Shown: positions 5,432 through 37,625 of the stretch, one piece after another
Layout of the letters: each line of letters begins with the position of its first letter
How positions within the stretch are numbered: the stretch's first letter is position 1
NCBI GenBank assembly: GCA_938023075.1
Contig: CALHDG010000149.1
Coordinates: 1 to 37,625, forward strand
Reading direction: 5' to 3'
DNA: 37,625 nucleotides
DNA from: an uncultured Chitinophagales bacterium
Lineage (GTDB): Bacteria; Bacteroidota; Bacteroidia; Chitinophagales; JAHDHT01
Notes under the pieces: generated by a model
Database searches by the model: none
What the model saw: only the letters and a program-made list of their open reading frames with translations
Told to the model about the DNA's origin: nothing
Made by a program: the position numbers and the translations under genes

Positions 5432-5672
5432 AAATTTATCTAAACAATAACACTTTTGCATTAATTTTTTTTTTTGAAGCGAAACCTTGTTGCATCAAAA
5501 TAACCTTGGTCCCGCTTTCCGCTCAAATGCTATTGCTTGGCTGCAGTTGCTAAGCGGCAAAATAACATAACCGCTGCAATCGGGGCTAGTTTAAAAACTT
5601 CGGTGCTTCGTAGAAAAATAAAAAACGAAGCCACTCGAAAACAGAAAAGTATCCACTACTTTGCTAAACTTT
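5432..5672 (+). repeat. Family-1 structured repeat, copy A
   Basis: This is one of four copies of a repeat of about 245 bp. The outer ends form an imperfect inverted repeat (AAATTTATCTAAACAA at the left, TTTGCTAAACTTT at the right). Next comes a T-run and GAAGCGAAAC, then a highly conserved core (about 5506-5591) with GGTCCCGCTTTCCGCTCAAA and CCGCTGCAATCGGGGCTAG. Between them is a hairpin with arms at 5527-5534 and 5561-5568, ATGCTATT with AATAACAT (one G-T wobble). The hairpin differs in sequence from the other copies but still pairs. A 62-codon open frame through it is not considered a gene. Confidence 0.85.
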
Positions 5673-5789
5673 TTAAAATTAAGGTAATAAAAAACCGCAA
5701 ATTTCTAAAAATTCACCTAATTTAATATCAATTATGCTATTTACATTTAAGTTTAATGAGAAAATAAATGTTCAAATTTTAGCGAAGAG

Positions 5790-5870
5790 ATTTTTCGATA
5801 TACATGGCAAAAAACACAGGGTTAGTGAGGCTAAGACGAGGTTATTAAATGGCAGACAGTTTAAAAACTA
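5790..5870 (+). repeat. Family-2 short repeat, degenerate copy
   Basis: The segment TTTTTCGATATACATGGC AAAAAACAC followed by GGCTAAGACGAGG resembles the family seen better at 15203-15312, at 34300-34396 (minus) and at 36541-36620. It lies in a 700-bp gap (5361-6060) that also holds repeat copy A and two hairpins but no gene. Confidence 0.5.
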
Positions 5871-5964
5871 GCCAAATGCATTTACTAAAAATTCAACTTA
5901 TATCAATTTGATTATAAAAGGGAATACAAAAATTTTGAATATATTTTGGTGAGATACAAACGCA

Positions 5965-6013
5965 GGCATAGTCAGCAGCTATGCCGAGTATTTTTAATCC
6001 CGAAACTTCGGGA
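5965..6013 (+). other. Two adjacent hairpins
   Basis: GGCATAG (5965-5971) pairs with CTATGCC (5979-5985) and is followed by TATTTTT. Then TCCCGAA (5998-6004) pairs with TTCGGGA (6007-6013). The hairpins sit just downstream of the minus-strand DUF1304 gene. The T-run follows the first hairpin on the plus strand, where no upstream gene is evident, so a terminator role is uncertain. Confidence 0.45.
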
Positions 6014-6060
6014 CCAACAATAAAACGAAATTTGTGTTACATTTTATGGTCAATTTGGTA

Positions 6061-6423
6061 TTATACAAATAAAACGAATAATAAGGCGACCATAGCCGGT
6101 AAGGCTTGAACAAAAAATATTTTACGATCAGCCGTTGCTGCCCCATAGATGCCGGCAACAGCAACGCAACTCAAAAAAAATATCGAGATATTTTGCTTCC
6201 ATGCTGGATTACTAATGAAAAATGTCCAGATTAAACCGGCTGCCAAAAATCCATTGTACAATCCCTGATTGGCAGCCATGGCTTTGGTTGGAAGAAACAA
6301 ATCTTTTGGAAAGTTACGAAAAACTTTAGGACCTCTCGAAGTCCAAGCAAACATTTCAAACCATAATATATATAGATGAATGAAGGCTATGATGCCAATT
6401 AAAACCTTAATTATTATTGCCAT
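6061..6423 (-). CDS. DUF1304 family membrane protein
   Basis: The 120-residue protein matches the DUF1304 pattern: an opening hydrophobic helix with FIHLYILWFEMFAW, the FRNFPKDLF segment, then NQGLYNGFLAAGLIWTFF and two further membrane helices, four in total. Length equals the family norm. It is predicted to lie in the inner membrane; no biochemical function is established for the family. It is divergent from the DUF2891 gene with only 51 bp between start codons, so both promoters must lie in or next to that AT-rich spacer. Confidence 0.9.
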   Translation of the reverse strand: MAIIIKVLIGIIAFIHLYILWFEMFAWTSRGPKVFRNFPKDLFLPTKAMAANQGLYNGFLAAGLIWTFFISNPAWKQNISIFFLSCVAVAGIYGAATADRKIFFVQALPAMVALLFVLFV

Positions 6424-6474
6424 ATTTACAGTTCAATTTAAAAATAATATATTTACGAAGTAAAAAAAAATTAA

Positions 6475-7605
6475 ATGATGAACAGACAAGTATACGGAAT
6501 ATTACTGGTAGTTAGTTTGATGTTAGCTTGCTCATCATTATCAAAACAACAAGCCCTTAAACCTGTGCATGTTATGGAACCAACAAAAACCGAACAAATA
6601 ATTAACTTAGATTTAGCAGAGGCAAATAGATTAGCTAATCTGCCTTTGGCTTGCATTCAAGAGCCCTTACCTTATAAAGCCGGATTAACCATAGCCAAAC
6701 CGGCTGATTTAGCGATGCCCATTGAACATCACCCGGCATTTTACGGTTGTTTCGATTGGCATTCTGCCGTGCACGGGCATTGGTCGTTAATTTATTTGCT
6801 CAAAAATTTTCCTCAATTAGAAAGAAGAGCAGAAGCCATTGAAAAGTTACAAGAAAATTTAACTGCCGAAAACATGGAAAAGGAAGTAGCTTATTTTTCT
6901 TTAAATAAAGAAAGTCAATCATTTGAACGCACTTATGGTTGGGCTTGGTTGCTAAAATTGCAAGAAGAATTATACACTTGGGATGACCCTTTATCCAAAC
7001 AATTGTACCAAAACATTCAACCTTTGGCAAACTATGTAGCTCAAGCTTATATAGATTATTTACCTAAATTAGTGTATCCCATTAGAGTGGGGGAGCATAC
7101 CAATACTGCTTTCGGTTTAAGTTTTGCCTATGATTATGCGCTTGCGGTAAACGATACCACTTTACAAAACAGCATTACCATAAATGCTTTACGTTTCTAT
7201 CAAGATGATAAAGGTTGCCCAATCAATTGGGAGCCGAGTGGTTATGACTTTTTATCGCCGTGTCTGCAAGAGATTGATATTATGCGAAAAGTATTGGATG
7301 AGGCTACTTTTGAAACATGGTTTGCCAACTTTTTACCGGAATTATATCAGCAGCAATTACATTTGGAACCAGGTAAAATTATAGACCGGTCGGATGGAAA
7401 GTTAGTGCATTTAGACGGCTTAAATTTTTCGAGAGCCTGGTGTTTATATCCCTTAAAAAATAATATAAATGCTTATAATTTAGCTACAGAACATTTAGAT
7501 TTTTCATTGAGCAAAATTACGGATGGTGATTATGCCGGACAACATTGGTTGGGTTCCTTTGCCTTGTATGCTTTTAAAAGTAAAATTGCTGCTGATCAGA
7601 AATGA
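6475..7605 (+). CDS. DUF2891 family lipoprotein
   Basis: The 376-residue protein has an N-terminal lipoprotein signal (LVVSLMLACSS, Cys19) and the diagnostic DUF2891 blocks: HHPAFYGCFDWHSAVHGHW near residue 85, WEPSGYDFLSPCLQEID near residue 255, LDGLNFSRAWCLY near residue 315, and YAGQHWLGSFALYA near the C-terminus. The repeated His/Trp/Asp-rich motifs suggest an (alpha/alpha) toroid enzyme, but no reaction is established for the family. Two in-frame ATGs (6475, 6478) begin the gene; the first gives MMNRQ. It is expected at the periplasmic face of a membrane. It ends 40 bp from the convergent small membrane gene. Confidence 0.9.
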   Translation: MMNRQVYGILLVVSLMLACSSLSKQQALKPVHVMEPTKTEQIINLDLAEANRLANLPLACIQEPLPYKAGLTIAKPADLAMPIEHHPAFYGCFDWHSAVHGHWSLIYLLKNFPQLERRAEAIEKLQENLTAENMEKEVAYFSLNKESQSFERTYGWAWLLKLQEELYTWDDPLSKQLYQNIQPLANYVAQAYIDYLPKLVYPIRVGEHTNTAFGLSFAYDYALAVNDTTLQNSITINALRFYQDDKGCPINWEPSGYDFLSPCLQEIDIMRKVLDEATFETWFANFLPELYQQQLHLEPGKIIDRSDGKLVHLDGLNFSRAWCLYPLKNNINAYNLATEHLDFSLSKITDGDYAGQHWLGSFALYAFKSKIAADQK

Positions 7606-7645
7606 ACTGTATTTTTGTAGAAAACGATTTCAGTTTAATAGATTA

Positions 7646-7933
7646 TTATGCCTTGTTTTTATTTTTTCTTTCCACAATAATAAGAAGCAACATGGTTATT
7701 CCCCAAGTTAATAGACAATCTATGATTAAACATTCCCCATTCCAACCGGAATTTGGTATTGGACAATTAAGCATAAATTCGTGATAATATTCATATGGGA
7801 ATCCAATGCTTAATTCGTAAAATCCTTCTGTTCTTTTTTGTGGTGAATTGATTTGAAATAGAATGGTTAAAAATGAAATCGAGAAGAAAATTAATATCGA
7901 TAATATTGTTCCTTTAATTATTTGTTTTGTCAT
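7646..7933 (-). CDS. Small two-helix membrane protein
   Basis: This 95-residue protein has membrane helices at about 5-27 and 69-87. Between them is a loop with GFPYEYYHEF, CPIPNSGWNGECLIIDCLLTW, and a basic C-terminal tail (ERKNKNKA). The pattern of a YY-F motif followed by GWN and D-LLTW recurs, as I recall, in small Bacteroidota proteins of unknown function. The start ATG at 7933 is directly preceded by repeat copy B, so the repeat forms its upstream region. Function unknown. Confidence 0.7.
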   Translation of the reverse strand: MTKQIIKGTILSILIFFSISFLTILFQINSPQKRTEGFYELSIGFPYEYYHEFMLNCPIPNSGWNGECLIIDCLLTWGITMLLLIIVERKNKNKA

Positions 7934-7941
7934 TTTTGAAT

Positions 7942-8187
7942 GAGTTTATCAAATTGATTTATGCTTTCTTGTTTTAGGATGTCATCATTTTATATTCTTT
8001 CTACAAAGAACCGAAGTTTTTAAACTAGCCCCGATTGCAGCGGTTATGCCATTTTGCGGAGGCTTTGTAGCGCAGGCAAATGGCATTTGAGCGGAAAGCG
8101 GGACCCACGTTATTGCAAAGCTAAACGGCTTCGCTTCAAAAAAAGATGAGCGGGAAAGTGAACTGCTTTATTGCTTTAATGAACTTT
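7942..8187 (-). repeat. Family-1 structured repeat, copy B
   Basis: In inverse orientation to copy A, this has end motif AGTTTATCAAA at the left, then the core from about 8026 (CTAGCCCCGATTGCAGCGGTT) to about 8105 (TTGAGCGGAAAGCGGGAC), then GCTTCAAAAAAA and the matching far end. The hairpin arms ATGCCATT (8046-8053) and AATGGCAT (8079-8086) are perfect. The flank 8188-8318 holds no gene that I can see. Confidence 0.88.
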
Positions 8188-8318
8188 GCTGTTTTTTGAT
8201 GAATAAAAGAAAAATAAATTAACCTAAAAATCTTTTGATGCCAAACAACTCTTGTCGCGGCTTGTTAGTAAAACTTATTGTCGTTGCGCATGTGTATATA
8301 CAAATGTTGATTTTTAAC

Positions 8319-10430
8319 CTAATACCCACCATTATACTTTCGAATAAACCACTCGAAAGCGAGAAAGCCCAGTAACATAAAAAACAACCATTTTAAATTA
8401 ATAAACGCCCGGTTTTTAAAATTTGAAAACATAACCGGTTTAATGTTTTGTTGATTGAGCAGCGAATCTGTAAGGGCTTCTAAATCGTTTTGATAAAAAA
8501 CCTGCCCACCTGTACGTTCGGCTAAGGTATATAACAATTGATGATTAGCGGTTGTGTTTAAAGCTTCTAATTCGCGAGGAATTACATTGAACTCCCCTTC
8601 TGCATCGTAACTATTACCGGCATATGTGGTTTTAGATTTAAAAGTATACACCCCAACCGGAAAGATGCCGGCATCTAACTTATAGGCATTAGCAGTTTTG
8701 TTAAATATAAAAGGAAACTCTTTACCGGCTTCATCAAATATGCTTAAACTTACATCACTATCGTTAACCAATTGGTAACTGTCGTTATACAACTCGGCAT
8801 CAAAAGTAATGCGTTCATTTTCATAGTATAAATTTTTAGAGGAGTTGGTTCTAAATTTTCGTTTATCACTTTTAACGGATAAATATTGAATCGTTTTACC
8901 AAACAATTCTTCAATGGTTTCTAATTGATTGTCGCCCTGATAATCATACATGCGCCAACGCCAGATACCTTCGCCGGCAAAAGCAGCACTTTTAACTACA
9001 TTCGATTGTTCTAAAATTAACAAGGGGTAATTTGTGTTTACGCTGCCAATTTTTTGCCTTAGTAAAGTAACCGTATTTTCGCCAATAGCATACTCCCCAA
9101 ATGGTGTATTTACAGGCGGCAAGTTGCTTAAGTTTTCTAAAATACCTGGCTCAATGGTAAACAAGGTAAAGTTATCAACGGCTTCAGCTTTGGCATCGTT
9201 CATTTGATTTTTGCTGCCACGTACTAACAACAATGATTGCGCTTTATTGAATCGTTCAATATCGGTTTGCTGGCTTACAATATATAAAACGGGAATACTT
9301 TTTTCTTTAATGGTTTTTAATGCCTTTTCTGATGGATTAGCTTTAGATGGCAAGCCGTGTAAAATCACCAAATCGTACAAACTAATATCATCTTTAAAAG
9401 TGCGGATAAAACCAGTTTTGGTTTCGTAGTTTTCGTTGGTTTCTATAATGGTTTTTAAGGTAGATAAATCGGGATGTGGGGCATCAGCCAATAACAAAAT
9501 CTTTTGGCGGCTGTCTAACACTTCTACATAAATGTTTTGAATATTATTACGCCAGGTTTCTTCTCCTTTTATTTTATCTAATTGAATGGAATACTTGTTA
9601 ATGCCGGGTGTGTTCGCTTCTAACTCAAACTCGTAAGTTTTGGTAAAATCACCTGTTTTTACAATTACTTTTTCTAAGGCAACTCTGTTTTCGTCTCCAT
9701 TTTTATTAATTTTAATGGCTTTTAAATTGGTGCCTTCGCCCTCGCAATTAGTGGCGTACACATCTACCCGAACCGTAAATTTATCTCTTAAATAAGCAAT
9801 TTTATTGTGATAAATACGCTCAATTTTAATGTCGCGTTTTGGAGTAGTATCACCAACGGCAATGCTATAAACCGGCACATTTAATTTACGGTTGCTGTAT
9901 ACTGGGTTGCCCCCTTCATTATAAATACCATCGGTTGATAAAATAACCGCCCCTACATTTTGATTAGTATAACGATCGTATAATTCGCCTAAGGCTTTTT
10001 CAATATTGGTCGTTTTTTCGTTGTACGTATAGTTGAGTTCGTCTTTAAAATTATCAGCAAATTGATAGGAATGGACTGCGTATTTTTCCTCTAGTTTTTT
10101 AATGATATTTTGTGTTGTATTTTGAAAAGTGGTGGTATCTCCATTTAAAGCCGACCGCATCGATTCTGAATTGTCTTGTGCATAAATGATGATGGGATTT
10201 TCCACCTCGGTTACCCGGTTTTTTAACAAAGGCATCAACAACAAAAAAGCCAAAAAGCTAACGGCTAAAAACCGAACCAATGATAACCATTTGATGGCAT
10301 TTTGTACAAACCTGCCTGCATCTTTAAAAGTAGTATCTTTAAAATACAATGCAAAAGCGTACACTGCACCCAGCAGCAAACACAAACCAATGTACCACCA
10401 GGGGTAACTTAAAGCTATAGTTGAATCCAA
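8319..10430 (-). CDS. VWA-domain membrane protein with amidotransferase-like fold region
   Basis: The 703-residue protein has two membrane helices near residues 14-30 and 45-67 and one near the C-terminus (LKWLFFMLLGFLAFEWF), with a large domain between. A von Willebrand A domain begins at about residue 82 (IIIYAQDNSESM), with a DxSxS metal-site motif and a later LSTDGIYNEGG. Residues about 310-520 (ILLLADAPHPDLSTLK, DLVILHGLPSK) resemble the class I amidotransferase-like fold found in this architecture. A beta-sandwich follows. Homologues are often membrane-anchored VWA proteins of unknown function. It is the sole gene of its unit; the hairpins at 10593-10685 lie upstream. Confidence 0.85.
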   Translation of the reverse strand: MDSTIALSYPWWYIGLCLLLGAVYAFALYFKDTTFKDAGRFVQNAIKWLSLVRFLAVSFLAFLLLMPLLKNRVTEVENPIIIYAQDNSESMRSALNGDTTTFQNTTQNIIKKLEEKYAVHSYQFADNFKDELNYTYNEKTTNIEKALGELYDRYTNQNVGAVILSTDGIYNEGGNPVYSNRKLNVPVYSIAVGDTTPKRDIKIERIYHNKIAYLRDKFTVRVDVYATNCEGEGTNLKAIKINKNGDENRVALEKVIVKTGDFTKTYEFELEANTPGINKYSIQLDKIKGEETWRNNIQNIYVEVLDSRQKILLLADAPHPDLSTLKTIIETNENYETKTGFIRTFKDDISLYDLVILHGLPSKANPSEKALKTIKEKSIPVLYIVSQQTDIERFNKAQSLLLVRGSKNQMNDAKAEAVDNFTLFTIEPGILENLSNLPPVNTPFGEYAIGENTVTLLRQKIGSVNTNYPLLILEQSNVVKSAAFAGEGIWRWRMYDYQGDNQLETIEELFGKTIQYLSVKSDKRKFRTNSSKNLYYENERITFDAELYNDSYQLVNDSDVSLSIFDEAGKEFPFIFNKTANAYKLDAGIFPVGVYTFKSKTTYAGNSYDAEGEFNVIPRELEALNTTANHQLLYTLAERTGGQVFYQNDLEALTDSLLNQQNIKPVMFSNFKNRAFINLKWLFFMLLGFLAFEWFIRKYNGGY

Positions 10431-10592
10431 TTGTTGTAGAAATTATAAATACGAAACGCAAAGATCGGTAAATATTTCTGAATTGTGGTATAAAATGTAG
10501 TATAGTAAGGTTATGCAGTTTTTTGACGAATTGATTATTATTGAGTGGCAACTTTTAGTAAAGTTCTAATTCTTGCTTAAAAAACCAGCACA

Positions 10593-10685
10593 AGTGAACC
10601 TTTAAGGAACACTCGTACCAGCGTAGGGCATCATTAAGGGCCTTCTAATAAACGGTGGCACCGTTTGGTGTCATTTATTTATTAG
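10593..10685. other. Two compact hairpins in a 390-bp gap
   Basis: Hairpin 1: AGTG/CACT and CCTT/AAGG arms at 10593-10613, nearly perfect. Hairpin 2: CTAATAAA (10645-10652) pairs with TTTATTAG (10678-10685) and encloses GGCACC-GTTT-GGTGTC. They lie between two minus-strand genes and could be a structured leader, a terminator region of the 136-residue gene, or a mobile-repeat remnant. No other content is recognisable in 10431-10820. Confidence 0.5.
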
Positions 10686-10820
10686 TTAGTGGTTTCAGCT
10701 CTCAACTATAAATTTTTTCTACAAGTCAATTTTTAGATTGATGTTTAGAAAAGCTTAGAATTTCTTATATAATTTTGCTTTTTATTCAACCGAATAGTTG
10801 AGCATAGACTACTCGTAGAA

Positions 10821-11231
10821 TTAGGTTGATGCCAATTCATCAACTCCATTTTCAACAACTTCTTTTATTGCTTCTCTCTCTACAGCTTGTTCGTGTACAA
10901 TGATGTACCTTCCCGCGCCATCTGTTGTAACCCGGTAAGGATTATCGACGGTAACAATTACCATTGTTTCAATACTGGGCTGACTGTTTTTTAGCATTAC
11001 GTTGAGCCGTACTTTACGCGTGGTGGAAGTTTTCATTCGGGTCGAAATACTTAAGTTAAAAACGCGTCCTTCTTTGTTGGCGTTAATTGTAAACTCTGCT
11101 CTGCCGCCGAGTGGTATCCGCTCATTCTTGTCGTTAACCGATATACTGTAAAATGCGGAGGTTTCTACCAAAGCAGAAAAAAGCAATTCGTCTTTTACTG
11201 TTCTTCTTAAATTAATTCTTGAACAAATCAT
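10821..11231 (-). CDS. Hypothetical beta-rich protein
   Basis: This is a 136-residue protein I do not recognise. It is dense in beta-type segments (GRAEFTINANKEGRVFNLSI, RKVRLNVMLKN, ETMVIVTVDNPYRV) with an acidic helical tail (EREAIKEVVENGVDELAST). There is no signal peptide or membrane helix. Its codons look more GC-rich than the flanks, which supports coding. On the minus strand TACTTTTG (plus coordinates 11305-11312) fits the -7 box and would give a leader of about 65 nt. The hairpins at 10593-10685 lie downstream. Small beta proteins of this kind can be adaptor or structural domains, but I do not assign one. Confidence 0.65.
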   Translation of the reverse strand: MICSRINLRRTVKDELLFSALVETSAFYSISVNDKNERIPLGGRAEFTINANKEGRVFNLSISTRMKTSTTRKVRLNVMLKNSQPSIETMVIVTVDNPYRVTTDGAGRYIIVHEQAVEREAIKEVVENGVDELAST

Positions 11232-11530
11232 TTGTTGAATATTTTTTTAGTTATAACCTACTCTGTTATGGCTTTTCGGTAAGGCACCTTTATTAGTAAA
11301 AACTCAAAAGTATTGGTCAAAATCTGATATTACAACTACATTTTTCAGCCAAAAAACATTTTAATAGTAGTATCAAATTTTAGGTTTTAATAGGCAGTAA
11401 AATTTTTAAGTTTCTGACAATCAATAAATTGAAAAATTATATGGTTATACTATAAGCTTAGAATTAAACAATTTAGATAAGCATAATTTTGTGGCTTAAA
11501 TCAAATAGAATATTATGAGTATATTTGAAA

Positions 11531-12985
11531 ATGGTCACGTATCCAAAGTCTGTTCGCCTGCTGCTATCTCTTAGTCAAAAAGAGTGCACAAAGTTTAAAG
11601 ATTATTTAAAGTCTCCTTTCTTTAATAAAAAGAATAGTACTTTATTGAAGCTGTTTAAGCAAATCATAAAAGATTTTAAAATCGATAAAAAAGGCTATTG
11701 TGAGAAAAAATTAATGCAACAGATATATGGAGCATTCAACAAAAGAAAATTCGATTTTGACTTGCAAAAATTAAGAGAGCACTTTGAATATTTTGTAGCT
11801 TTTCAACACATAAAAAACGACTCTGCAAAATGCAATCAATTGGTTTTAGAAGATTATTTAGATAGAGATGGTGGTAGCTTTTTTGAAAGCAAATACAACC
11901 AAATTAAAAAACAGTTAACTGAAAAGCCGGCTGACATTTATCAATATCAGCAGCTTTTTTTTATTGAAGAATTGTTTGACAGCTATATTAAATTATACAA
12001 AGATAACAGGGTAAATGATTCTAATTTGCAAGCCGTTAGTGATGCTATTGATCAAGATTTTTTACTTAAAAAAATGTGCTTCACCGTACTCATGCACAAC
12101 CGTCAAAATATTGCCAAAACTACCTATGATTTTGGTTTAACAGCACCTGTTTTAACCTATTTAAAAGATAAGGAGAACGAAAAAGACCCTTTAACTAATT
12201 TGTTTTACTATGCCTACGAAATACAAACCGGTAACGATAAAAAAAGTGCTTACAAAAAATTAAATGCCGCTTTACAAAAAAAAGATCTCAACATAAATAA
12301 TGAAATGGCAACAGCCTTATTTATGATTTTGCATAATAATTACAAGCACTTAGCCGGCAGTAAGCAACAATTAGATCATCAAGTATTTGATCTTTACCAA
12401 ATTATGATTGGTAAAAACTATATTCAGATCAATGGAAAGTTATCTAGCTCTTTGTTTAAAAACTTGGTTTCTATAGGTTTGGAATTAGATAAGTATGATT
12501 ATGTTGAACAACTTATTGATGAATATAAAAACAAATTGCTACCAGAAGAATATGCTGAACAAGTTTTTGCCTACAGTAAAGCAAAACTGTTGATTTACCA
12601 AAACAAACCGCACAAAGCCAGAGAATTGATTTCAACTATAAAGTTTGGGGACGCCATTTATAAATTTGATTTGAAATGCTTATATATTATGTTGTATTAT
12701 GATTTAAAAGAGTTTACACTTTTAGAGGCACAATTTAGTCGCTTTGATGTAGCCCTTGCCCCAAAAAGACCACCTTTTATTTCGCCGGTTAACACCATAG
12801 CTTACCGGCAATTTATTCTTTTTACCAAAAAACTATACCGGTTGAGCATAAACGCCGTTGCCGCTGAACAAGCAATTGAAGATTTAAATGCAGCATTAGA
12901 ACAAACTATACAAATTGGCTGCAAAAATTGGTTGAAGATGCGTGTGAAAGCACTGCTAACAGAAAAAAGTATTAGCACGGTTTAA
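11531..12985 (+). CDS. Conserved helical hypothetical protein
   Basis: The 484-residue protein is almost entirely predicted helix, lysine-rich, with no signal or membrane segment. It begins MVTYPKSVRLLLSL from an ATG; a TTG six bases upstream is in frame but less likely. A -7 box TAATTTTG lies at 11484-11491. The opening (SLSQKECTKFKDYLKSPFFN, then a KRKFDFDLQKL segment) resembles a Bacteroidota-restricted family of unknown role that I recall only by appearance. The C-terminal half has repeat-like helices (YDYVEQLIDEYKNKLLPEEY). No catalytic motif is visible. It may act as a cytoplasmic scaffold. Confidence 0.75.
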   Translation: MVTYPKSVRLLLSLSQKECTKFKDYLKSPFFNKKNSTLLKLFKQIIKDFKIDKKGYCEKKLMQQIYGAFNKRKFDFDLQKLREHFEYFVAFQHIKNDSAKCNQLVLEDYLDRDGGSFFESKYNQIKKQLTEKPADIYQYQQLFFIEELFDSYIKLYKDNRVNDSNLQAVSDAIDQDFLLKKMCFTVLMHNRQNIAKTTYDFGLTAPVLTYLKDKENEKDPLTNLFYYAYEIQTGNDKKSAYKKLNAALQKKDLNINNEMATALFMILHNNYKHLAGSKQQLDHQVFDLYQIMIGKNYIQINGKLSSSLFKNLVSIGLELDKYDYVEQLIDEYKNKLLPEEYAEQVFAYSKAKLLIYQNKPHKARELISTIKFGDAIYKFDLKCLYIMLYYDLKEFTLLEAQFSRFDVALAPKRPPFISPVNTIAYRQFILFTKKLYRLSINAVAAEQAIEDLNAALEQTIQIGCKNWLKMRVKALLTEKSISTV

Positions 12986-13078
12986 GATAAAAGCCAGATA
13001 ATACGGTTGATAGAAAAAGTGTAATCATTTTTTTTCAACATAAAATTTGGTTGTTTTGCAATAGCAGCATATTTTTAA

Positions 13079-13108: not shown

Positions 13109-13144
13109 TTGCACAAAATTTAAAAGCACATTTAAAGTTATAAG

Positions 13145-15035: not shown

Positions 15036-15040
15036 TGTCA

Positions 15041-28158: not shown

Positions 28159-28159
28159 C

Positions 28160-29925: not shown

Positions 29926-30006
29926 AAAATAAATTTGTGATTATTTCTTTTATGAAGAAGTGAGTTGTAACCTCGTTTTTGAGAATTAAGAACAGGAGTT
30001 ATAAAT

Positions 30007-30648
30007 TTAGGACGTAAAAATGGTTTTAAAAAACAAGGGCATTTGTGAAGTGCCACTATTGGGGTTTTCAAAACTAAATTTTTTGATAGCAGTAGCATGT
30101 TTTAGAGCAGTATTTACGTGCGGCTTTAGTTTTGAATAAATATCATTGTTTCGCTTGACATAGAATTGCCGAGTTTTCTCATAACCAGATAAATATTTTT
30201 TGGTGTTCAAAAGTTTTTCAACTGGTTCACATTTTTGAAATAATTTGTTGGTTTGTTCAAAATGCAATAGAAACCAAAACTCCAAACAGGGGTTATTTAT
30301 GATGAACACCATCTTCTTCTTCAATTCTTCATTTTTCTGAACTTCAATTTCATACTTTATCAATTTCTGAAGTGATGTTTCAGCACCCTTTTTTGATTTT
30401 TTAGTTTCACTCAACACAACATCTAAATCGATGATCCAGAAAACTTTGGTATAATCTTCAGCAAGCACTTTTGCCATCTTAAATTGATCTTCCAGTTTTT
30501 TCTTCACAGGTAGTTTCGGTTCAATATTAATGTTTAAATTTCGTTCGTTACGCTTCAACATTTGCAAATACCAAAATTCGGTTTTGCCTTCAACCACAAT
30601 TGCATAAACGGGTTTACTCTTTCGCAGCTTTTTTCTTCGCCTACTCAT
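30007..30648 (-). CDS. RloB family TOPRIM-like protein
   Basis: The 213-residue protein matches the RloB family: a basic start (RRRKKLRKSK), IVVEGKTEFWYLQML with E20, the acidic pair in FWIIDLDVVL (D74, D76), and the diagnostic NNPCLEFWFLLHF (118-130). The last is the strongest mark. RloB proteins are TOPRIM-fold proteins usually encoded beside an ATPase and linked to restriction loci and to the AbiL abortive-infection system. Its ATG lies two bases after the stop of the ATPase gene, so the pair is co-translated. Nuclease activity is inferred, not shown. Confidence 0.9.
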   Translation of the reverse strand: MSRRRKKLRKSKPVYAIVVEGKTEFWYLQMLKRNERNLNINIEPKLPVKKKLEDQFKMAKVLAEDYTKVFWIIDLDVVLSETKKSKKGAETSLQKLIKYEIEVQKNEELKKKMVFIINNPCLEFWFLLHFEQTNKLFQKCEPVEKLLNTKKYLSGYEKTRQFYVKRNNDIYSKLKPHVNTALKHATAIKKFSFENPNSGTSQMPLFFKTIFTS

Positions 30649-30650
30649 TT

Positions 30651-31925
30651 CTACAGATCAATATAGTAATCTCCTAAATTAGGTACTCCACCTAATTTGC
30701 CACTTTTGTAAGCATTTAAGCGGTTGGTGGTATCCCTTATAACTGAAGAATCAAAATCAGCTAATGAATATAATTCGGTAGCGCAGTCTGGGTTGTTTTT
30801 ATCAGTTATCCAAATAGCATCGTCTCTAAAAATGTCTTTGTTATTTAAGATTTCACGATTATGGGTTGTAGCAAGTATTTGAGAATTATTGGAGTTCATC
30901 AAAAAGGTCGTTAATATATGTAGATATAAATCCGGATGAAGTGCTAATTCTAATTCATCAATTAGTAATAAGCTATATTGTGGAGTGCTAACTAATAACC
31001 ATAAATAGAATGATAAATCAAGAACTCTTAGCGTACCGTTCGACTGTAATTCTGAAGGAAGGGTAAATTTTTTGTTTCCTACTTTATGTTCAAATTCGAT
31101 GTGATAATGTTCTTCAAGTATTTTTTTATCGATTTTTTTTGTGTGATTAATTAATTGAAGGTTTTTTTCTAAAGGTACGTTATACAAATTAGAAATATTG
31201 AAATCCGCTTTTTGTAAAATGCTCAGCATAAAATTTTTGCTGTCCTTATCTTCTACTGCATCCTTTAGATACTGAAAATAATCTTGATTATTAAAAAGTA
31301 ATTGATGCTCAATACTATAAGGCAAATTAGCAAACCAATCAATCACTTCTTTTAATTCTCCTAAATCAATATTTGTTTTTAAAAATCCTCCGAAAACCGT
31401 ATTATTCCATAATGTATTAGATTCCAATGTCTTTTTAAAGGTCTTATCAATTTTTAGTTTATCCCCGAACTTTATTTCAGTAAATTGATTTTTTATATCC
31501 GACTTTCTATTAAAAATAATTGTCTTTTTAGGATCATATTTAATTAAAGACTCATTTACAATAGCTTTCTTAAAAAAGACAATTTCATAATAATATCTAA
31601 TGCCGTTTTGGATGAATTCAATAGAGATGTAACTGTTTGAATTTGGAGTATTTTCATCAAAAAGAAAAGGATTAAAATCTAACTCATCAGTCTTTTTTTC
31701 TTTAGGAAATAATACAATTGTAATCAAAAAATGTAATACATGCAAAACAGTCGTCTTCCCTGAAGCATTCGCCCCATATATCAAACCCAATTTTAACAAG
31801 CGATGGCCAGTTTCTGTTTTAATAACATAAATATCTTCTAAATGAGTTGATTTATCTGCTTCAAAAGATAAGGTCTGCTTATCTTTTATTGAACCAAAAT
31901 TTTGAACACTAAAGTTGATGATCAT
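30651..31925 (-). CDS. AAA/ABC-type ATPase partner of RloB (RloA/AbiLi-like)
   Basis: The 424-residue protein has an SMC/ABC-like ATPase layout: IINFSVQNFGSIKDKQTLSF at the N-terminus, Walker A GANASGKTT (51-59), an ABC-signature-like LQSNGTLR (293-300), Walker B LLLIDELE (319-326) with the LHP D-loop, and the H-motif TTHNREIL (353-360). The middle region (about 75-280) is helical/beta and variable. It belongs to the AAA_15/AAA_21-type ATPases encoded in many phage defence modules with a TOPRIM partner. Sensing a phage signal and activating RloB is the likely mode, by analogy. Its own promoter must lie in the divergent spacer shared with mnmG. Confidence 0.9.
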   Translation of the reverse strand: MIINFSVQNFGSIKDKQTLSFEADKSTHLEDIYVIKTETGHRLLKLGLIYGANASGKTTVLHVLHFLITIVLFPKEKKTDELDFNPFLFDENTPNSNSYISIEFIQNGIRYYYEIVFFKKAIVNESLIKYDPKKTIIFNRKSDIKNQFTEIKFGDKLKIDKTFKKTLESNTLWNNTVFGGFLKTNIDLGELKEVIDWFANLPYSIEHQLLFNNQDYFQYLKDAVEDKDSKNFMLSILQKADFNISNLYNVPLEKNLQLINHTKKIDKKILEEHYHIEFEHKVGNKKFTLPSELQSNGTLRVLDLSFYLWLLVSTPQYSLLLIDELELALHPDLYLHILTTFLMNSNNSQILATTHNREILNNKDIFRDDAIWITDKNNPDCATELYSLADFDSSVIRDTTNRLNAYKSGKLGGVPNLGDYYIDL

Positions 31926-32113
31926 ATCAATATATGTAAATCGTTTACAAAATAAGCTATTTAAATTGATATTTATAGATGTTTTTCATTAAAAACTGAA
32001 ATTGATTTACATAAAAATTCACTAGGTTCTCCTGAAAATTTTGATTGCAACTTACCGCTGTTAGAAAGTGAATTGTTTATGATCATTCGAAATTAAAAAC
32101 CACCTACATATCG

Positions 32114-32121
32114 TATCTTTG
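32114..32121 (+). promoter_or_regulatory. Perfect -7 promoter box for mnmG
   Basis: TATCTTTG at 32114-32121, ten bases before the ATG at 32131. A TTCG at 32086-32089 may act as a -33 element, with a 24-bp spacing. The leader would be only a few nucleotides long. This box also explains why the in-frame TTG at 32119 is not the start. Confidence 0.55.
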
Positions 32122-32130
32122 CGCCCAATC

Positions 32131-33990
32131 ATGTTTCCAACATACGATATAATTATAGTAGGCGGTGGGCACGCCGGTAGTGAAGCGGCAGCAGCAGCCG
32201 CTAACCTTGGCTCAAAAACCTTATTGATTACCATGAATATGGAGGTAATTGCTAAAATGAGTTGCAACCCGGCAATGGGCGGTGTTGCCAAAGGACAAAT
32301 TGTTCGAGAGATAGATGCCTTAGGCGGCTACAGCGGTATTGTATCCGATGAAACCATGATTCAATTTCGGATGCTCAACCGCAGTAAAGGACCCGCCATG
32401 TGGTCGCCGCGTTGCCAGAGTGACCGTATGCGCTTTGCCGAAAAATGGCGATTAATGTTAGAACAAACGCCCAATCTTGATTTTTGGCAAGATATGGTGA
32501 CCGGCTTGTTAATAAAAGGAGATCAAATAGTAGGCGTAAAAACCGGCTTAGGAGTTGAGATTAACTGCAAAGCAGTCGTGCTAACCAATGGTACTTTTTT
32601 AAATGGAAAAATTCACGTAGGCGAAAAGAATTTTGGTGGTGGCAGAATGGGGGAAAAGTCGGCAACCGGTATTACCGCTCAACTGATTGAATTGGGTTTT
32701 GAACATGGGCGTATGAAAACCGGCACCCCACCACGCATAGATGGGCGCAGTTTAAATTACAGCTTAATGGAAGAACAAGCCGGAGAAGAATGTCCTGAAG
32801 GATTTTCATTTACTGATACCCAAAAGCCCACCGGGCAACGTCCTTGCCACATTACTTATACCAATCCAAAAGTTCACGATATTTTAAAAACCGGTTTTGA
32901 AAAATCGCCTATGTTTGCCGGACGAATTCAAGGTATTGGTCCACGCTACTGCCCTTCTATTGAAGATAAAATTAACCGCTTTGCCGAGCGCGAACGCCAC
33001 CAATTGTTTGTGGAGCCCGAAGGTTGGCATACCATCGAAATTTATGTGAATGGTTTTTCTTCTTCTTTACCAGAAGAAGTTCAATATAAAGCCTTGCAAC
33101 ACGTGCCCGGCTTTGAAAATTGCAGAATGTTTAGACCAGGTTATGCAATTGAGTATGATTACTTTCCACCTATACAATTAAAACACAATTTAGAAACCAA
33201 GTTGATTCACAACCTGTTTTTTGCCGGACAAATTAATGGAACCACCGGCTATGAAGAAGCGGCTTGCCAGGGCTTAATGGCTGGTATAAATGCACATCAA
33301 AACATAAACGAGTTAGCCCCTTTAATTTTAAAAAGAGACGAAGCTTATATTGGAGTACTGATTGATGATTTGATTAATAAAGGAACGGATGAGCCTTACC
33401 GGATGTTTACTTCGAGGGCGGAATATCGTATTTTATTGCGACAAGATAATGCCGATATCCGCCTAACTCATATTGGTAACCAACTCGGGCTTGCTGACGA
33501 AAACCGTTTGCAAAAAGTACATGAGAAAAAGCAACAAACCCAAGCTATTGAAAAATGGTTAAGCAAAACCAGTGTTTCTCCCGATCAGGTTAATCCTTTG
33601 TTAACGTCCGTAAATTCTTCTCTCATCAACCAAAAAGTGAAATTAAAAACGATTTTTTTACGCCCTAATGTAGATTTTGATTTGTTGACTAAGATTGATT
33701 TTATACAAGAAGCCCTTGCCGGTTACGATACCGAAGTGTTGCAACAAGCGGCTATTCAAATGAAGTACGAAGGCTATATTGTTCGGGAAAAAGAAAACGC
33801 CGAAAAGATGCATCGATTAGAAAACATTAAATTAAATGAGCATTACGACTATAATCAAATTGTGTCGCTTTCTGCCGAAGGCAGAGAAAAACTGAAAAAG
33901 ATTAAACCGCTAAGCTTGGGGCAAGCTAGCCGGATAAGTGGGGTTTCCGCTGCAGACATTTCGGTATTGATGGTTCATTTGGGGAGATAA
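32131..33990 (+). CDS. mnmG: tRNA uridine-5-carboxymethylaminomethyl modification enzyme MnmG (GidA)
   Basis: MnmG, with MnmE, modifies U34 in the wobble position of certain tRNAs in the cytoplasm, using FAD. The 619-residue product (usual length) starts [20 protein letters not shown], the FAD-binding Rossmann motif. Then come [50 protein letters not shown] and, near the middle, [20 protein letters not shown], all highly conserved. The C-terminal helical domain ends with [20 protein letters not shown], also standard. No MnmE gene is in the window. A repeat copy begins directly at its stop codon, with no terminator in between. Confidence 0.98.
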
Positions 33991-33994
33991 GTAG

Positions 33995-34242
33995 ATAAGT
34001 TTATCAAAGTGGTTGATACTGTATTGTTTTGGATTGTCACCCTTTTTTTTCTTTCTACGAAGTACTGACGTTTTTAAACTAGCCCCGATTGCAGCGGTTA
34101 TGCCATTTTGAGTGGCTTTTGCAGCGCAGGCAAATGGCATTTGAGCGGAAAGCGGGACCACCGTTTTTATCATGCTGCAAAGTTTCGCTTCAAAAAAAAA
34201 TTAGTGCAGAGGACTAAATTACTTTATTGTTTGAATAAACTT
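33995..34242 (-). repeat. Family-1 structured repeat, copy C
   Basis: The orientation equals copy B. It begins GATAAGTTTATCAAAG five bases after the mnmG stop and ends near CTTTATTGTTTGAATAAACT. The core is at about 34078-34158, with hairpin arms ATGCCATT (34100-34107) and AATGGCAT (34133-34140). The 87-codon minus-strand frame across it shares ITAAIGASLKTSVLRRK with copy A, but is not considered a gene. Confidence 0.88.
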
Positions 34243-34299
34243 GTTGATAATTCAAAAATAACTGTCCATTTTTACCTTTGAGATTTTCCGAACTACTTC

Positions 34300-34396
34300 T
34301 TTAAAAATACTCGTCTTAGTTCCCCACTATGACTATGTTTTTCGCCTCGTCTATCAAAAAATGACTTTGACATAAAAAGTAGATTTATTTTCTCCG
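34300..34396 (-). repeat. Family-2 short repeat
   Basis: The inverse copy of the repeat at 15203-15312: in minus orientation it reads AAAATAAATCTACTTTTTAT, then TCAAAGTCATTTTTTGATAG and ACGAGGCGAAAAACATAGTC. It abuts the leucine-rich-repeat remnant at 34399. Confidence 0.75.
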
Positions 34397-34398
34397 CA

Positions 34399-34563
34399 TT
34401 ACTTATAGATGCAAAGAATGGGGACATTCATTTTATTATCTGCAAGAGTTAATATTTTAGGATTTTCCAAATTTCCAATAACATCAGGTAATTGACCGGT
34501 AATACTATTTTCAACCATTTTGACAAATGTAACTTTAGCTAAGTCTCCAATGGCGGCTGCTAT
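34399..34563 (-). pseudogene. Leucine-rich-repeat gene remnant
   Basis: A minus-strand frame reads IAAAIGDLAKVTFVKM, VENSITGQLPDVIGNLE and PKILTLADNKMNVP before a stop at 34399. This is the plant-type LRR pattern (N-x-ITG-x-LP-x-x-IGNL-x-N-x-x-x-LxLxxN). There is no start codon in the right place and no signal peptide or second full repeat, so it is a decayed fragment. Its end coincides with the family-2 repeat. The rest of the gap to nadK (34564-34649) holds nothing recognisable. Confidence 0.6.
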
Positions 34564-34649
34564 ATAGAAAAAATTACACTTCCATATAGCAAAATAAATT
34601 AATCAGCATCGTTTATTGTTATCTGAAAAATTCATTGTAATAACGGCTC

Positions 34650-35528
34650 TTAATTTCTTTTATCTACTCCCCACATCAACTTACTTCTCAACGAATGCAA
34701 AAAGCTACTATCCGGTAAACGGATCAGTTGCAGTTTAAAGTCTGCTTTATTTACTTTGGGTATATCATCAACATTAATAGTGGTATGTCGCGAATCTAAG
34801 GTGGCGATAAACTGATCGTTCCGCCCTTCTGCATCAAAGGAAATCTCTACACTTTCATCAACCACAATAGGGCGTACATTTAAATTGTGTGGAGCAATGG
34901 GCGTAATAACTAAAGTTTTGCTATTGGGCTGAATAACCGGACCACCACAACTTAGTGAGTAACCGGTTGAACCAGTTGGCGTAGCCACTATTACCCCATC
35001 TGCCCAATACGAATTTAAAAACTCTCCATTAATAAAAGCGTGTACCGTAATCATTGAGGAAGAATCTTTTTTATAAATAGTAAACTCGTTTAAGCCGTAA
35101 ATTAATTCGCCAAACAAAGGTTTTGCTAACGATACTTGTAGCAAAGCCCGCTCGTCAATTACATATGTTTTTTGCTGCAAGGCGTTAAGGGCGGTTTCAA
35201 TATCAGCTTTGTTTACCGTAGCTAAAAAACCAAGCCGCCCCATATTTATACCCATTACTTTAACCCGGCTGTTACGCACTATGTTAACACTATCTAACAA
35301 AGTACCGTCTCCACCAAGCGTTAGTAAATAATCAATATGTTGCGCAATGTTGGGTTCATATTGAAATAGCTTAGGCTCGTTTTTAAAAATAATTTTTTCT
35401 TTAATAATTGGATAGAAAAGTTGGTGTACTGCAAAATCAATTTCTTTTTCATAAAGCAAGTTAATCAGTTGCTGAACAAAATCGGTATGTGCTTCGTGCA
35501 ACACTCTGCCGTATAAGCCTATCGTCAT
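34650..35528 (-). CDS. nadK: NAD kinase
   Basis: NadK phosphorylates NAD to NADP in the cytoplasm. The 292-residue protein has the family motifs: LLTLGGDGTLLDSVNIV with GGDGT at 72-76, GINMGRLGFLATV, a NEFTIYKKDSSSM segment, and the second nucleotide-binding motif VIVATPTGSTGYSLSCGGP, then ITPIAPHNLNVRPIVV. Length is normal. It lies 33 bp after lipA on the same strand and so is probably its operon partner. Confidence 0.97.
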   Translation of the reverse strand: MTIGLYGRVLHEAHTDFVQQLINLLYEKEIDFAVHQLFYPIIKEKIIFKNEPKLFQYEPNIAQHIDYLLTLGGDGTLLDSVNIVRNSRVKVMGINMGRLGFLATVNKADIETALNALQQKTYVIDERALLQVSLAKPLFGELIYGLNEFTIYKKDSSSMITVHAFINGEFLNSYWADGVIVATPTGSTGYSLSCGGPVIQPNSKTLVITPIAPHNLNVRPIVVDESVEISFDAEGRNDQFIATLDSRHTTINVDDIPKVNKADFKLQLIRLPDSSFLHSLRSKLMWGVDKRN

Positions 35529-35561
35529 TAATTTAATTCAACTTTATAATTCTTAAAATTA

Positions 35562-36431
35562 TTAGAATACGTGCCTTTCTGCATGGTAAGATGAACGAAC
35601 TAAAGGTCCGCTTTCTACATATTTCAAGCCTTTTTCTAAACCAACGGTTTTGTATAGGTCAAAAATTTTGGGTTCAATAAATTCAGCTACTGCCAAATGC
35701 ATTTTTGTTGGTTGTAAATATTGCCCGATAGTTAATATGTCGCAACCATGCGCTACCAAGTCATCCATAATTTGAAATACTTCTTCTTGTGTTTCCCCAA
35801 CGCCAACCATAATGCCACTTTTAGTGCGCTTTCCATAATTTTTGGTGTGTTGTATTTGTTCTAAACTACGGGCATATTTTGCTTGTGGACGAACTAAGCG
35901 ATACAAACGTTCAACAGTTTCCATATTGTGTGAAACTACTTCTTGTCCGGCACTAATCATTAATTCTAAAGCCTCCCAATTTGCTTTTACATCGGGTATC
36001 AAGGTTTCAATAGTTACTTTAGGGCTTGTGGTTTTAATTGCTCGAACGGTTTCATACCAAATCTGAGCGCCGCGGTCTTTCAATTCATCGCGGTTTACTG
36101 AGGTGATTACGGCATGTTTTACGTCCATCAATTTAATGGCTTCAGCTACACGTTTTGGCTCTTCGGTATCTAACTCGGTTGGTCTGCCGGTTTGTACCGC
36201 GCAAAAAGAGCAAGACCGGGTGCATACATTACCCAAAATCATAAAAGTAGCCGTACCTGCCCCCCAACATTCACCCATATTGGGGCAACTGCCACTTTCG
36301 CAAATGGTATGTAATTTATGCTCATCTACTAAACGGCGTACTTTTTTAAAGTTTTCGCCAGTAGGTAGTTTAACTCTCAACCAATTGGGTTTTTTTCTAA
36401 ATTGCTTTTTTTCAACTACTGTTTCTGCCAT
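35562..36431 (-). CDS. lipA: Lipoyl synthase
   Basis: LipA is the radical-SAM enzyme that inserts two sulfur atoms into protein-bound octanoyl groups to form lipoyl cofactors. The 289-residue protein has the auxiliary-cluster cysteines 44, 49 and 55 ([14 protein letters not shown]), the radical-SAM CxxxCxxC motif at 70-77 (CTRSCSFC), and the C-terminal RSSYHAE (279-285) with the serine that ligates the auxiliary cluster. Length is normal. Start ATG at 36431. It precedes nadK in a likely two-gene unit. Confidence 0.97.
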
Positions 36432-36540
36432 TATTTACTTTAAATAATAAGGCTAAGGTAAGCGATAATGTTGAATTATTAATCATTCTTTTTTATAGAT
36501 CAGTTATGAAGAGAAAATACATCTGCCTTTAGGTGAACGT

Positions 36541-36620
36541 TATTTTTTTGATGGACGAGGCAAAAAACACCGGCATTGCCAAAGCTACAACGAGGCTCTA
36601 TAACAAAGCCCATCAGAAAA
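36541..36620 (+). repeat. Family-2 short repeat, inside the apparent hemolysin reading frame
   Basis: TTTTTTTGATGGACGAGGCA followed by CAACGAGGCTC resembles the other family-2 copies. The ends are inverted: TTTTTTGATGG against CCCATCAGAAAA. It stays open in the frame that leads into the hemolysin III gene. Confidence 0.55.
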
Positions 36621-36700
36621 TAGAGAAGACAGCTTGTAGATTAATTTTTGCAGCCTTACTAAAAAGCTATACCTTACCATTTTTATTCTATTTATTATTT

Positions 36701-37327
36701 TTGGAAGAAAGTCAATATTCTATAAGAGAAGAAAAGTTAAATGTACAATCGCATGCGTTTGGTTTTTTGTTGAGCATTTTAGCATTAATTGTATTGGTTT
36801 TAAAAAGCTATGCACTACAACAACCTACAGTTTTATTTAGTGCTATTGTTTTTGGCAGTAGTTTTATTATTTTATATGCTGCCTCAACTTTGTATCATCA
36901 ATCTACCAATGCCATAACGCGCCGAAAATTACGGATACTCGATCATGCAGCTATTTATGTTTTAATTGCCGGCACTTATACACCATTTGTTATAGTCACA
37001 TTACAATATTGGGCTTTTTTATGGTTTATTTGGGGCTTTGCTTTAGCAGGTATTGTATTAAAGATATTTTTTACAGGCCGGTTTGATGCCTTTTCAACAA
37101 TTATGTATGTGATAATGGGATGGATAGGTGTTATAGCCATAAAACCATTAATGGAACATTTACCTTTGCCAGGTTTATGGTGGCTTTTGGGTGGTGGTAT
37201 TTTATATACGGTAGGTGCCGTTTTTTACAGTTTCAAAAAACTGCCTTACAATCATTTTATCTTCCATTTGTTGGTTTTGATGGGCAGTATATGCCATTTT
37301 ATATCAGTTTATTTTTATGTGTTGTAG
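36701..37327 (+). CDS. Hemolysin III/PAQR family membrane protein
   Basis: The product is 208 residues from the in-frame TTG at 36701, the usual family length. The open frame extends 56 codons upstream (GTG 36533, ATG 36551), but that part is a family-2 repeat and has no family resemblance. Motifs: REEKLNVQSHAFGFLLS near the start, STLYHQSTNAITRRK, LDHAAIYVLIAGTYTPF in the middle, and HFIFHLLVLMGSICHF near the end, which give the conserved Ser, His and Asp residues of the PAQR/hemolysin III family (possible zinc site). Seven membrane helices are expected. Function in bacteria is not established. The start could be elsewhere. Confidence 0.85.
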   Translation: MEESQYSIREEKLNVQSHAFGFLLSILALIVLVLKSYALQQPTVLFSAIVFGSSFIILYAASTLYHQSTNAITRRKLRILDHAAIYVLIAGTYTPFVIVTLQYWAFLWFIWGFALAGIVLKIFFTGRFDAFSTIMYVIMGWIGVIAIKPLMEHLPLPGLWWLLGGGILYTVGAVFYSFKKLPYNHFIFHLLVLMGSICHFISVYFYVL

Positions 37328-37452
37328 CTATACTTAGCCGCGTGTATGAAACAACTGTTTTGTATCAACATTATTAATTTCAAAGACTATTAAGAACCAT
37401 TGCTCGGGTAGTTGAAAAAAATTATGCTTCAAAAAAATATCGAAAAAGGGGA

Positions 37453-37625
37453 CAAGTTTATCCAAACAACAAATGTAGTTGATACTTTTGCATTGATTTT
37501 TTGAAGCGAAACTTCTTAGCTTTATAATACCACCGGTCCCGCTTTCCGCTCAAATGCAATTGCTATGCTTCAAAATCTGCGCTGCAAAATTGCATAACCG
37601 CTGCAATCGGGGCTAGTTTGTAAAC
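37453..37625 (+). repeat. Family-1 structured repeat, copy D, cut by window end
   Basis: It begins CAAGTTTATCCAAACAAC, then GAAGCGAAAC and the core with CCCGCTTTCCGCTCAAATGC. Hairpin arms are ATGCAATT (37554-37561) and AATTGCAT (37588-37595), and the conserved ATAACCGCTGCAATCGGGGC follows. The orientation equals copy A. The right end lies outside the window. Confidence 0.85.

What the first reader, a model, noticed from the sequence alone, without database searches (positions are those of the whole stretch)
5432..37625. Four-copy repeat with a covarying hairpin in an invariant frame
The core of each copy reads (in the orientation of copies B and C) AGCCCCGATTGCAGCGGTT, a hairpin, then TTGAGCGGAAAGCGGGACC. 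The flanks are nearly identical in all four. The hairpin arms are ATGCCATT/AATGGCAT (B, C), ATGTTATT/AATAGCAT (A) and ATGCAATT/AATTGCAT (D). At position 5 of the arm the pair is C-G, T-A or A-T; at position 4 it is C-G or a T-G wobble. Pairing is kept while sequence changes, and the loop differs freely. Each copy has inverted ends (AAGTTTATC-AAA type), so it may be a small mobile element carrying a structured RNA or DNA. I recall similar AGCCCCGAT...AGCGGAAAGCGGGA repeats in Flavobacteriia, but I cannot confirm the identity.
Basis: partly seen in the sequence, partly recalled or inferred. Interest (0 to 1): 0.7.

Follow-up and report, generated by a model that had tools for sequence, protein, structure and literature searches.

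The report
Flavo-1 hairpins riding small transposons
The four repeats are copies of a known but unexplained folded motif (Flavo-1) which in this bacterium has been picked up by a short jumping DNA element and copied around the genome, so a motif listed as a small RNA behaves here as mobile DNA.

Summary
The covarying hairpin is real, here and across genomes of the order. The inverted ends are real: window-type copies sit in a ~250-bp MITE ending GACAAGTTTATC...GATAAACTTGTC. Of 36 well-preserved elements 12 have an exact 8-bp target duplication (0 expected), and paralogous empty sites exist, one for window copy C. The same ends also bound elements without Flavo-1, and copies with the other hairpin type show these ends no more often than chance. 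So Flavo-1 is a separate module captured by a MITE. New anatomy: invariant A.G/G.A/G.G/T.T mismatches between covarying pairs, few G.U pairs (0.96% against 8.3% in tRNAs) and, in other genomes, a covarying closing stem outside the Rfam model. Transcription could not be tested. A RAYT/REP link was tested and not supported. The mobilising transposase was not found. What the hairpin does is inferred.

The parts
5429..5674 (-). Copy A: MITE, 246 bp, both inverted ends somewhat decayed
   Evidence: ends found by pattern and by end-matrix scores 24.8 and 19.6 against 1% thresholds of -5.8 and 1.7; flanking 8-mers alike at 3 of 8 only (read)
5504..5591 (-). Flavo-1 core of copy A; arms ATGTTATT/AATAGCAT with a T-G wobble
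   Evidence: RF01705, 41.3 bits, E 1.2e-5
7939..8189 (+). Copy B: MITE with strongly decayed ends
   Evidence: end-matrix scores 10.7 and 4.2; flanking 8-mers alike at 5 of 8 (read)
8023..8109 (+). Flavo-1 core of copy B; arms 8046-8053 and 8079-8086
   Evidence: RF01705, 42.5 bits, E 5.5e-6
33994..34245 (+). Copy C: MITE, best-preserved ends of the four; flanking 8-mers 33986-33993 and 34246-34253 alike at 6 of 8; sits inside another dispersed repeat
   Evidence: empty paralogous site in L071
34077..34163 (+). Flavo-1 core of copy C
   Evidence: RF01705, 40.0 bits, E 2.7e-5
37451..37625 (-). Copy D: MITE, one end (GACAAGTTTATC at 37451-37462), the other beyond the window
37531..37618 (-). Flavo-1 core of copy D; arms ATGCAATT/AATTGCAT
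   Evidence: RF01705, 37.8 bits, E 1.1e-4

Best explanation
Each copy is a non-autonomous DNA transposon (MITE, about 250 bp, inverted ends GACAAGTTTATC, 8-bp target duplication) whose interior is one subfamily of the Flavo-1 hairpin module. A transposase acting in trans on the ends copied it round the genome (movement shown by target duplications and empty sites; the enzyme is inferred, not found). The Flavo-1 module is separable from this MITE: it occurs in the same genome and in other genomes of the order without these ends, as a dispersed repeat. Its fold, a long hairpin with invariant non-Watson-Crick pairs between covarying Watson-Crick pairs, is kept by selection, most likely because a protein recognises the folded single strand (inference). 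Whether that strand is DNA or RNA is not decided. The scarcity of G.U pairs and the lack of a sense bias towards genes lean to DNA, that is, to the module being a mobile repeat in its own right rather than a dedicated small RNA.
For: Family. Copy number: at least 143 (150 of 1826 candidates scored). Ends: 159 matches to the end pattern with at most 1 mismatch against 3 for its reversed control. Target duplications: of 36 elements of 200-300 bp with at most 2 end mismatches in all, 12 have exact 8-bp duplications (0.000 expected from swapped flanks) and 20 have at least 7 of 8 (null 1.2%); exact lengths 4-7 show no excess. Empty sites: three Flavo-1 elements (L058, L039, window copy C) and one without Flavo-1 (L172), of 35 elements examined that were chosen for like flanks, lie in other repeats whose uninterrupted paralogues match across the junction. 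Separability: L172, L175, L176, L180 have the ends but other interiors; by end matrix 0 of 35 copies of the other (mostly ATCC) hairpin type have an end, against 65 of 112 of the window type (the matrix was trained on 31 of the latter). Fold: 302 double-change cells against 86 in shuffles, 97.0% paired, covariation score 0.660 against at most 0.120 when slid; pair 14-157 shows UA 31, AU 26, GC 12, CG 6. Seven non-Watson-Crick positions with at most one exception each. G.U 11 of 1150 standard pairs against 22 of 265 in 12 tRNAs of the fetched loci. Context: tandem sense 26, tandem antisense 41, convergent 35, divergent 17 of 119.
Against: No autonomous partner with these ends was found, though only part of the genome was read and four DDE transposase families were tried. 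47 of 112 window-type copies have no recognisable end. With a loose pattern (3 of 12 mismatches) 3 of 33 ATCC-type copies show an end-like match, one on both sides; a random window of that length has one in 4.4%, so about 3 are expected by chance. Window copies A and B have lost their target duplications. G.T mispairs outnumber A.C mispairs 22 to 4, so one strand is favoured, which RNA would also explain. Several 5' transcribed regions in F. psychrophilum coincide with Flavo-1 hits (PMC9723704, passages). One measure (further pair types) was reached by 11 of 500 shuffles.
Confidence: 0.8

Rival explanations
1. Flavo-1 is a functional small RNA or cis-acting RNA element, and the MITE merely spreads it as a useful transcript module (like RNA-processing signals carried by Correia-type elements, recalled).
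For: Rfam files it as a gene, sRNA; structure covaries; G.T exceeds A.C 22 to 4, as expected if the + strand folds; in F. psychrophilum several 5' transcribed regions overlap hits (PMC9723704, passages).
Against: G.U pairs are about nine times rarer than in tRNAs; orientation to neighbouring genes shows no sense bias (26 sense, 41 antisense); PMC9723704 found hits indistinctly in sense or antisense of transcribed regions and many outside them; presence is patchy, 58 of 149 genomes of the order at E <= 1e-5 (a lower bound). Transcription was not testable here.
Confidence: 0.3
2. Flavo-1 is a REP sequence moved by a RAYT (TnpA_REP) transposase.
For: Five RAYT genes in three genomes (G082, G095, G052) have a Flavo-1 copy 156-866 bp upstream in opposite orientation; hairpin with conserved mismatches and high copy number resemble REPs; subclass 2.6 RAYTs of Bacteroidetes are reported to be flanked by atypical structures with copies elsewhere in the genome (PMC6006769, passages).
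Against: Of 80 RAYT loci, all titled as Bacteroidota members, 4 have any Flavo-1 match within the fetched flanks (up to 3 kb, some cut by contig ends), none closer than 0.9 kb; the RAYTs of G082 and G095, near-identical relatives in one genus, carry their own different hairpin repeat directly at the gene; words enriched beside RAYTs are others, and the Flavo-1 tail GCCCAAA is not enriched (5 seen, 9.8 expected).
Confidence: 0.05
3. The matching arms are produced by mutation, not selection: template switching within a quasi-palindrome, or exchange of whole hairpins between copies, makes both arms change together.
For: On a tree of flanks and loops most changes at arm pairs are double (25 of 26 events at pair 24), with few single intermediates; exchange of whole hairpins between copies would look like this.
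Against: Template correction would also mend the A.G, G.A, G.G and T.T positions, which are invariant or nearly so; pairs deep in the constant frame covary too, across many genomes.
Confidence: 0.12

Closest known systems
Flavo-1 RNA motif (Rfam RF01705)
   Same: All four copies match the whole 76-position model at E 5.5e-6 to 1.1e-4; frame and constant blocks agree.
   Different: Only one of four reaches the gathering score; the hairpin is of the TTATGC type with a longer loop; the copies sit in a MITE, which the passages I saw in three of the five papers that name Flavo-1 do not mention.
MITEs (non-autonomous insertion-sequence derivatives)
   Same: Short, without a transposase ORF, inverted ends, fixed-length target duplication, many copies, several interiors behind the same ends.
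   Different: Carries a separately conserved, covarying hairpin module; parent insertion sequence not found.
REP repeats with RAYT transposases
   Same: Dispersed intergenic hairpins with conserved mismatches.
   Different: No linkage to RAYT genes in general; the usual GTAG-type foot (PMC6006769, PMC3733652, passages) is not in the Flavo-1 consensus seen here.
Correia/NEMIS elements of Neisseria (recalled, no call)
   Same: Small inverted-ended elements with a structured interior between genes.
   Different: No relation of sequence was tested; RNase III processing and target preference are not known here.

Membership tests
Flavo-1 (RF01705) | covariance-model match over the whole motif | tested here: met
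   four full-length matches at 37.8-42.5 bits, gathering score 42; one above it, three just below; 143 matches at E <= 1e-3 in the genome
Flavo-1 (RF01705) | conserved paired structure | tested here: met
Flavo-1 (RF01705) | expressed as an RNA (Rfam type: gene, sRNA) | not testable with these tools
   no transcript data; PMC9723704 gives mixed evidence in another species (passages)
MITE | terminal inverted repeats shared by many copies | tested here: met
   159 matches against 3 control matches; matrix ends at 65 of 112 window-type copies, both ends at 35
MITE | fixed-length target-site duplication | tested here: met
   8 bp exactly in 12 of 36, expected 0
MITE | precise insertion shown by empty sites | tested here: met
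   three Flavo-1 elements and one other, of 35 joined flanks examined; sites are paralogous repeats, not alleles
MITE | related autonomous element with the same ends | tested here: inconclusive
   none among PF00872, PF12762, PF01610, PF01609 hits of the genome or in end pairs within fetched stretches; most of the genome was not read
REP of a RAYT | flanks a tnpA_REP gene | tested here: not met
   4 of 80 RAYT loci with a match in the flanks, none within 0.9 kb; own repeat of another sequence in G082/G095; five genes in three genomes do have a copy 156-866 bp upstream
Dedicated small RNA | G.U pairs at the rate of structured RNAs | tested here: not met
   11 of 1150 against 22 of 265 in 12 tRNAs; indirect, tRNAs are the only comparison made

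The most novel reading that the evidence does not exclude
Flavo-1, filed as a small RNA, is a single-stranded-DNA hairpin: a mobile palindromic module of Bacteroidota, recognised by a protein not yet known through its invariant mismatch frame, which moves by itself and is also picked up as cargo by inverted-repeat MITEs. The stand-alone unit is larger than the Rfam model (closing stem P1 plus a CCCAAA-like tail).
Probability: 0.3. Interest if true: 0.7.

Novelty: new variant of a known kind. Interest (0 to 1): 0.45.

Why it matters
Flavo-1 was described in 2010 (PMC2864571) and still has no function; it is listed among the most abundant bacterial small-RNA families (PMC9029176, passages). Evidence that copies transpose as DNA in one genome, and that the fold avoids G.U pairs, tells annotators and experimenters to test it as a mobile DNA repeat. 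The extended anatomy (closing stem, tail, invariant mismatch frame) gives a concrete bait for finding the protein that binds it.

Tried and rejected
RAYT/REP hypothesis: first looked promising because several Flavo-1 copies lie 156-866 bp upstream of RAYT genes. Set aside after 80 RAYT loci, 30 RAYT loci of the order of which 5 had a match at E <= 1e-4 (of these L262, L263, L267 and L280 are places already seen), the RAYTs' own repeats and word counts.

IS200-type Y1 transposases: 4 of the 20 Y1 loci with E <= 1.5e-20 (L192, L203, L215, L219) have a Flavo-1 within 1.5 kb, one 49 bp upstream of the ORF as predicted (L219). Two lie in G115, with at least 144 copies, one in G058, with at least 54, and L203 in G012, with 4. 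Not enough to claim a link; left open.

Autonomous partner: among end pairs 330-4500 bp apart in fetched stretches, those with identical 8-mers at both flanks (L085, L097, L181) hold no ORF of 120 codons, and those with such ORFs have no matching flanks. PF00872 is absent. The PF12762 locus (L372), the PF01610 locus (L401, its own inverted repeat begins GGTTCTACAAG) and seven PF01609 loci do not have these ends on both sides; L403, L404 and L405 have single or misplaced loose matches.

Closing stem P1 in the window type: the 5' side (TAGC) does not vary in the 112 copies and GCTA sits at +20 in 28 of them, so it is not supported there. Plasmid and phage collections: no match. Quasi-palindrome correction: set aside because of the invariant mismatches, but exchange of whole hairpins between copies probably inflates the double-change counts. 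One search (search for empty sites of all copies by separate flanks) gave many rows that were other copies or local repeats; one ATCC-type copy (L006) looks inserted in a local repeat, its ends not resolved.

Rows dropped: 27 of 174 regex hits that lacked the frame; for pairs 17-27 only 107 of 112 window-type copies long enough; 26 of 77 rows of TAGC type set aside for the P1 count (with all rows it is 43 of 77 against 5.6%); two of six queries with a match across the junction (L116, L179) matched only their own locus and were not counted.
Full report
What is there. Two constant blocks occur without mismatch four times each in the window, with 0.03 and 0.01 matches expected at up to 3 mismatches. 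Infernal assigns all four copies to RF01705, Flavo-1 (42.5, 41.3, 40.0, 37.8 bits; gathering score 42). The window is part of a 6.12-Mb draft genome in 288 contigs; that genome has 143 matches at E <= 1e-3, a lower bound because 150 of 1826 candidates were scored. In 149 genomes of the same order 58 have a match at E <= 1e-5 with strict filters and 29 candidates scored per genome, and none of 14 control genomes has one. The organism was not identified by name; one other genome of its family turned up.

The mobile element. I fetched 100 stretches of the genome and, with the window, extracted 147 cores. Aligning the flanks of the window-type copies showed a common left end GACAAGTTTATCAAAGTGGTTGATAC and a right end that, read inwards, is GACAAGTTTATC[TC]AAACAA. 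The end pattern occurs 159 times in the genome against 3 for the reversed pattern. Of 36 elements of 200-300 bp with at most two end mismatches (31 of them with a Flavo-1 core), 12 have exact 8-bp duplications at the flanks, where swapped flanks give none; 20 have at least 7 of 8, null 1.2%; no excess appears at exact lengths 4-7, and a single case extends to 9. Joining the flanks of 35 elements (chosen for flanks alike at 6 or more of 8), less one copy of the duplication, found uninterrupted paralogues across the junction for four: L172 (no Flavo-1; 4 subject loci), L058:2511 (8 loci), L039:6120 (3 loci) and window copy C (1 locus, 75% over 152 bp, with only 30 bases left of the junction). 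This is what a DNA transposase acting on the ends leaves behind.

Cargo and vehicle are separable. Four of nine end pairs read (L172, L175, L176, L180) bound 275-294-bp interiors without Flavo-1. Conversely, by end matrix 0 of 35 copies with the other (mostly ATCC) hairpin type have an end, against 65 of 112 of the window (TTATG) type, 35 with both (the matrix was trained on 31 of these). A looser pattern finds end-like words at 3 of 33 ATCC-type copies, about what chance gives (4.4% per side). So the 147 copies mix units with and without the MITE's ends; part of the 47 window-type copies without ends may be decayed MITEs. Copies without these ends are numerous in other genomes: at least 54 in G058 and 144 in G115, where 18 fetched loci (23.7 kb) hold no end-like word at up to 1 mismatch. 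The exact long left-end pattern was found in none of 39 relatives (G058 and G115 not among them).

The fold. Across 76 distinct sequences of many genomes 97.0% of cells pair, with 302 double-change cells (86 in shuffles) and a covariation score of 0.660 (slid controls at most 0.120); the weakest measure, further pair types, was reached by 11 of 500 shuffles. That alignment was fitted to a model that I built from 24 sequences with a structure of my own; on those 24, aligned by MAFFT, the figures are 94.8% and 0.575. In the 147 copies of this genome, taken by regular expression and not by a structure model, seven positions are non-Watson-Crick and nearly or wholly invariant: A.G 147/147, G.A 146/147, A.G 147/147, G.A 146/147, and in window-type copies G.G 107/107, T.T 107/107, T.T 106/107; the Watson-Crick pairs between them covary. 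In many copies of other genomes both strands of the stem carry much the same word, ATTGNARYGG..., so that the stem is nearly two-fold symmetric; I did not test this statistically.

RNA or DNA. Of 1150 standard pairs 11 are G.T (0.96%); in 12 distinct tRNAs of the fetched loci it is 22 of 265 (8.3%). In this genome it is 11 G.T, 2 A.C, 18 other and 2001 Watson-Crick of 2032. The rarity of G.U speaks for DNA, the excess of G.T over A.C (22 to 4) for folding of the + strand; neither is decisive, and cells are not independent. The copies show no sense bias: tandem sense 26, tandem antisense 41, convergent 35, divergent 17, with 12 at stretch ends and 16 inside ORFs of a crude caller. PMC9723704 (passages only) reports for F. 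psychrophilum that Flavo-1 hits seemed indistinctly in sense or antisense of transcribed regions and many were outside them, while several 5' regions coincided with hits.

Beyond the Rfam model. In 51 of 77 rows (26 of TAGC type set aside) the five bases before the core have their reverse complement downstream in 42; five-mers of other rows are found in 185 of 2278 trials (8.1%). Sixteen different five-mers take part, and 32 of the 42 are followed by CC, most often CCAAA (16) (rows of one genus are not independent). This closing stem, P1, often seems to enclose a further hairpin after the core (read by eye). It is not shown for the window type.

What moves Flavo-1 outside MITEs? The best guess, a RAYT, was tested and not supported, as set out under Tried and rejected. 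IS200-type transposases near four copies remain an open lead.

Literature. A whole-word search lists five papers that hold Flavo-1 or RF01705; I saw passages of three (PMC2864571, PMC9723704, PMC9029176) and nothing of the other two beyond the listing. None of these passages describes it as part of a transposable element; PMC2864571's table marks it y for RNA, n for cis-regulatory, n for switch. The best-ranked rows of searches for MITEs, repeats or RAYTs in this group show no such report by title or start of abstract; of these papers I saw passages of PMC6006769 and PMC3733652. The library lacks most subscription journals.

Verdict. A known family inside a MITE for which I found no earlier report in these searches, with a well-supported structure and a real argument that Flavo-1 is, here at least, mobile DNA. 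The function of the fold is inferred, not shown.

Noticed in passing
window 11255-11290 (-): Sub-threshold match to the DUF805b RNA (24.8 bits, cut-off 35.6), just upstream of ORF 10821-11231; that ORF has no Pfam match.
   Followed up: partly
L172, L175, L176, L180: Other MITE interiors (275-294 bp) behind the same GACAAGTTTATC ends; L175 holds the hairpin word GGTCGCAATTTTTGCGACC.
   Followed up: partly
L058 around 2511; L086, L028, L025, L091 and others: A further dispersed repeat of at least 170 bp that serves as target for the MITE.
   Followed up: no
L228, L259, L241, L243: RAYT genes with copies of their own repeat GTTCTGCTCGATTTGCAATCGAGCTGAG...; Flavo-1 copies upstream.
   Followed up: partly
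L219 1349-2094: Flavo-1 copy 49 bp upstream of an IS200-type transposase ORF with a C-terminal extension, between two other ORFs.
   Followed up: no
L292-L371, flanks of RAYT genes: Words GTTTAGCG, GTAACTCG and GTTACGCT are strongly enriched next to Bacteroidota RAYTs, perhaps parts of their REPs.
   Followed up: no
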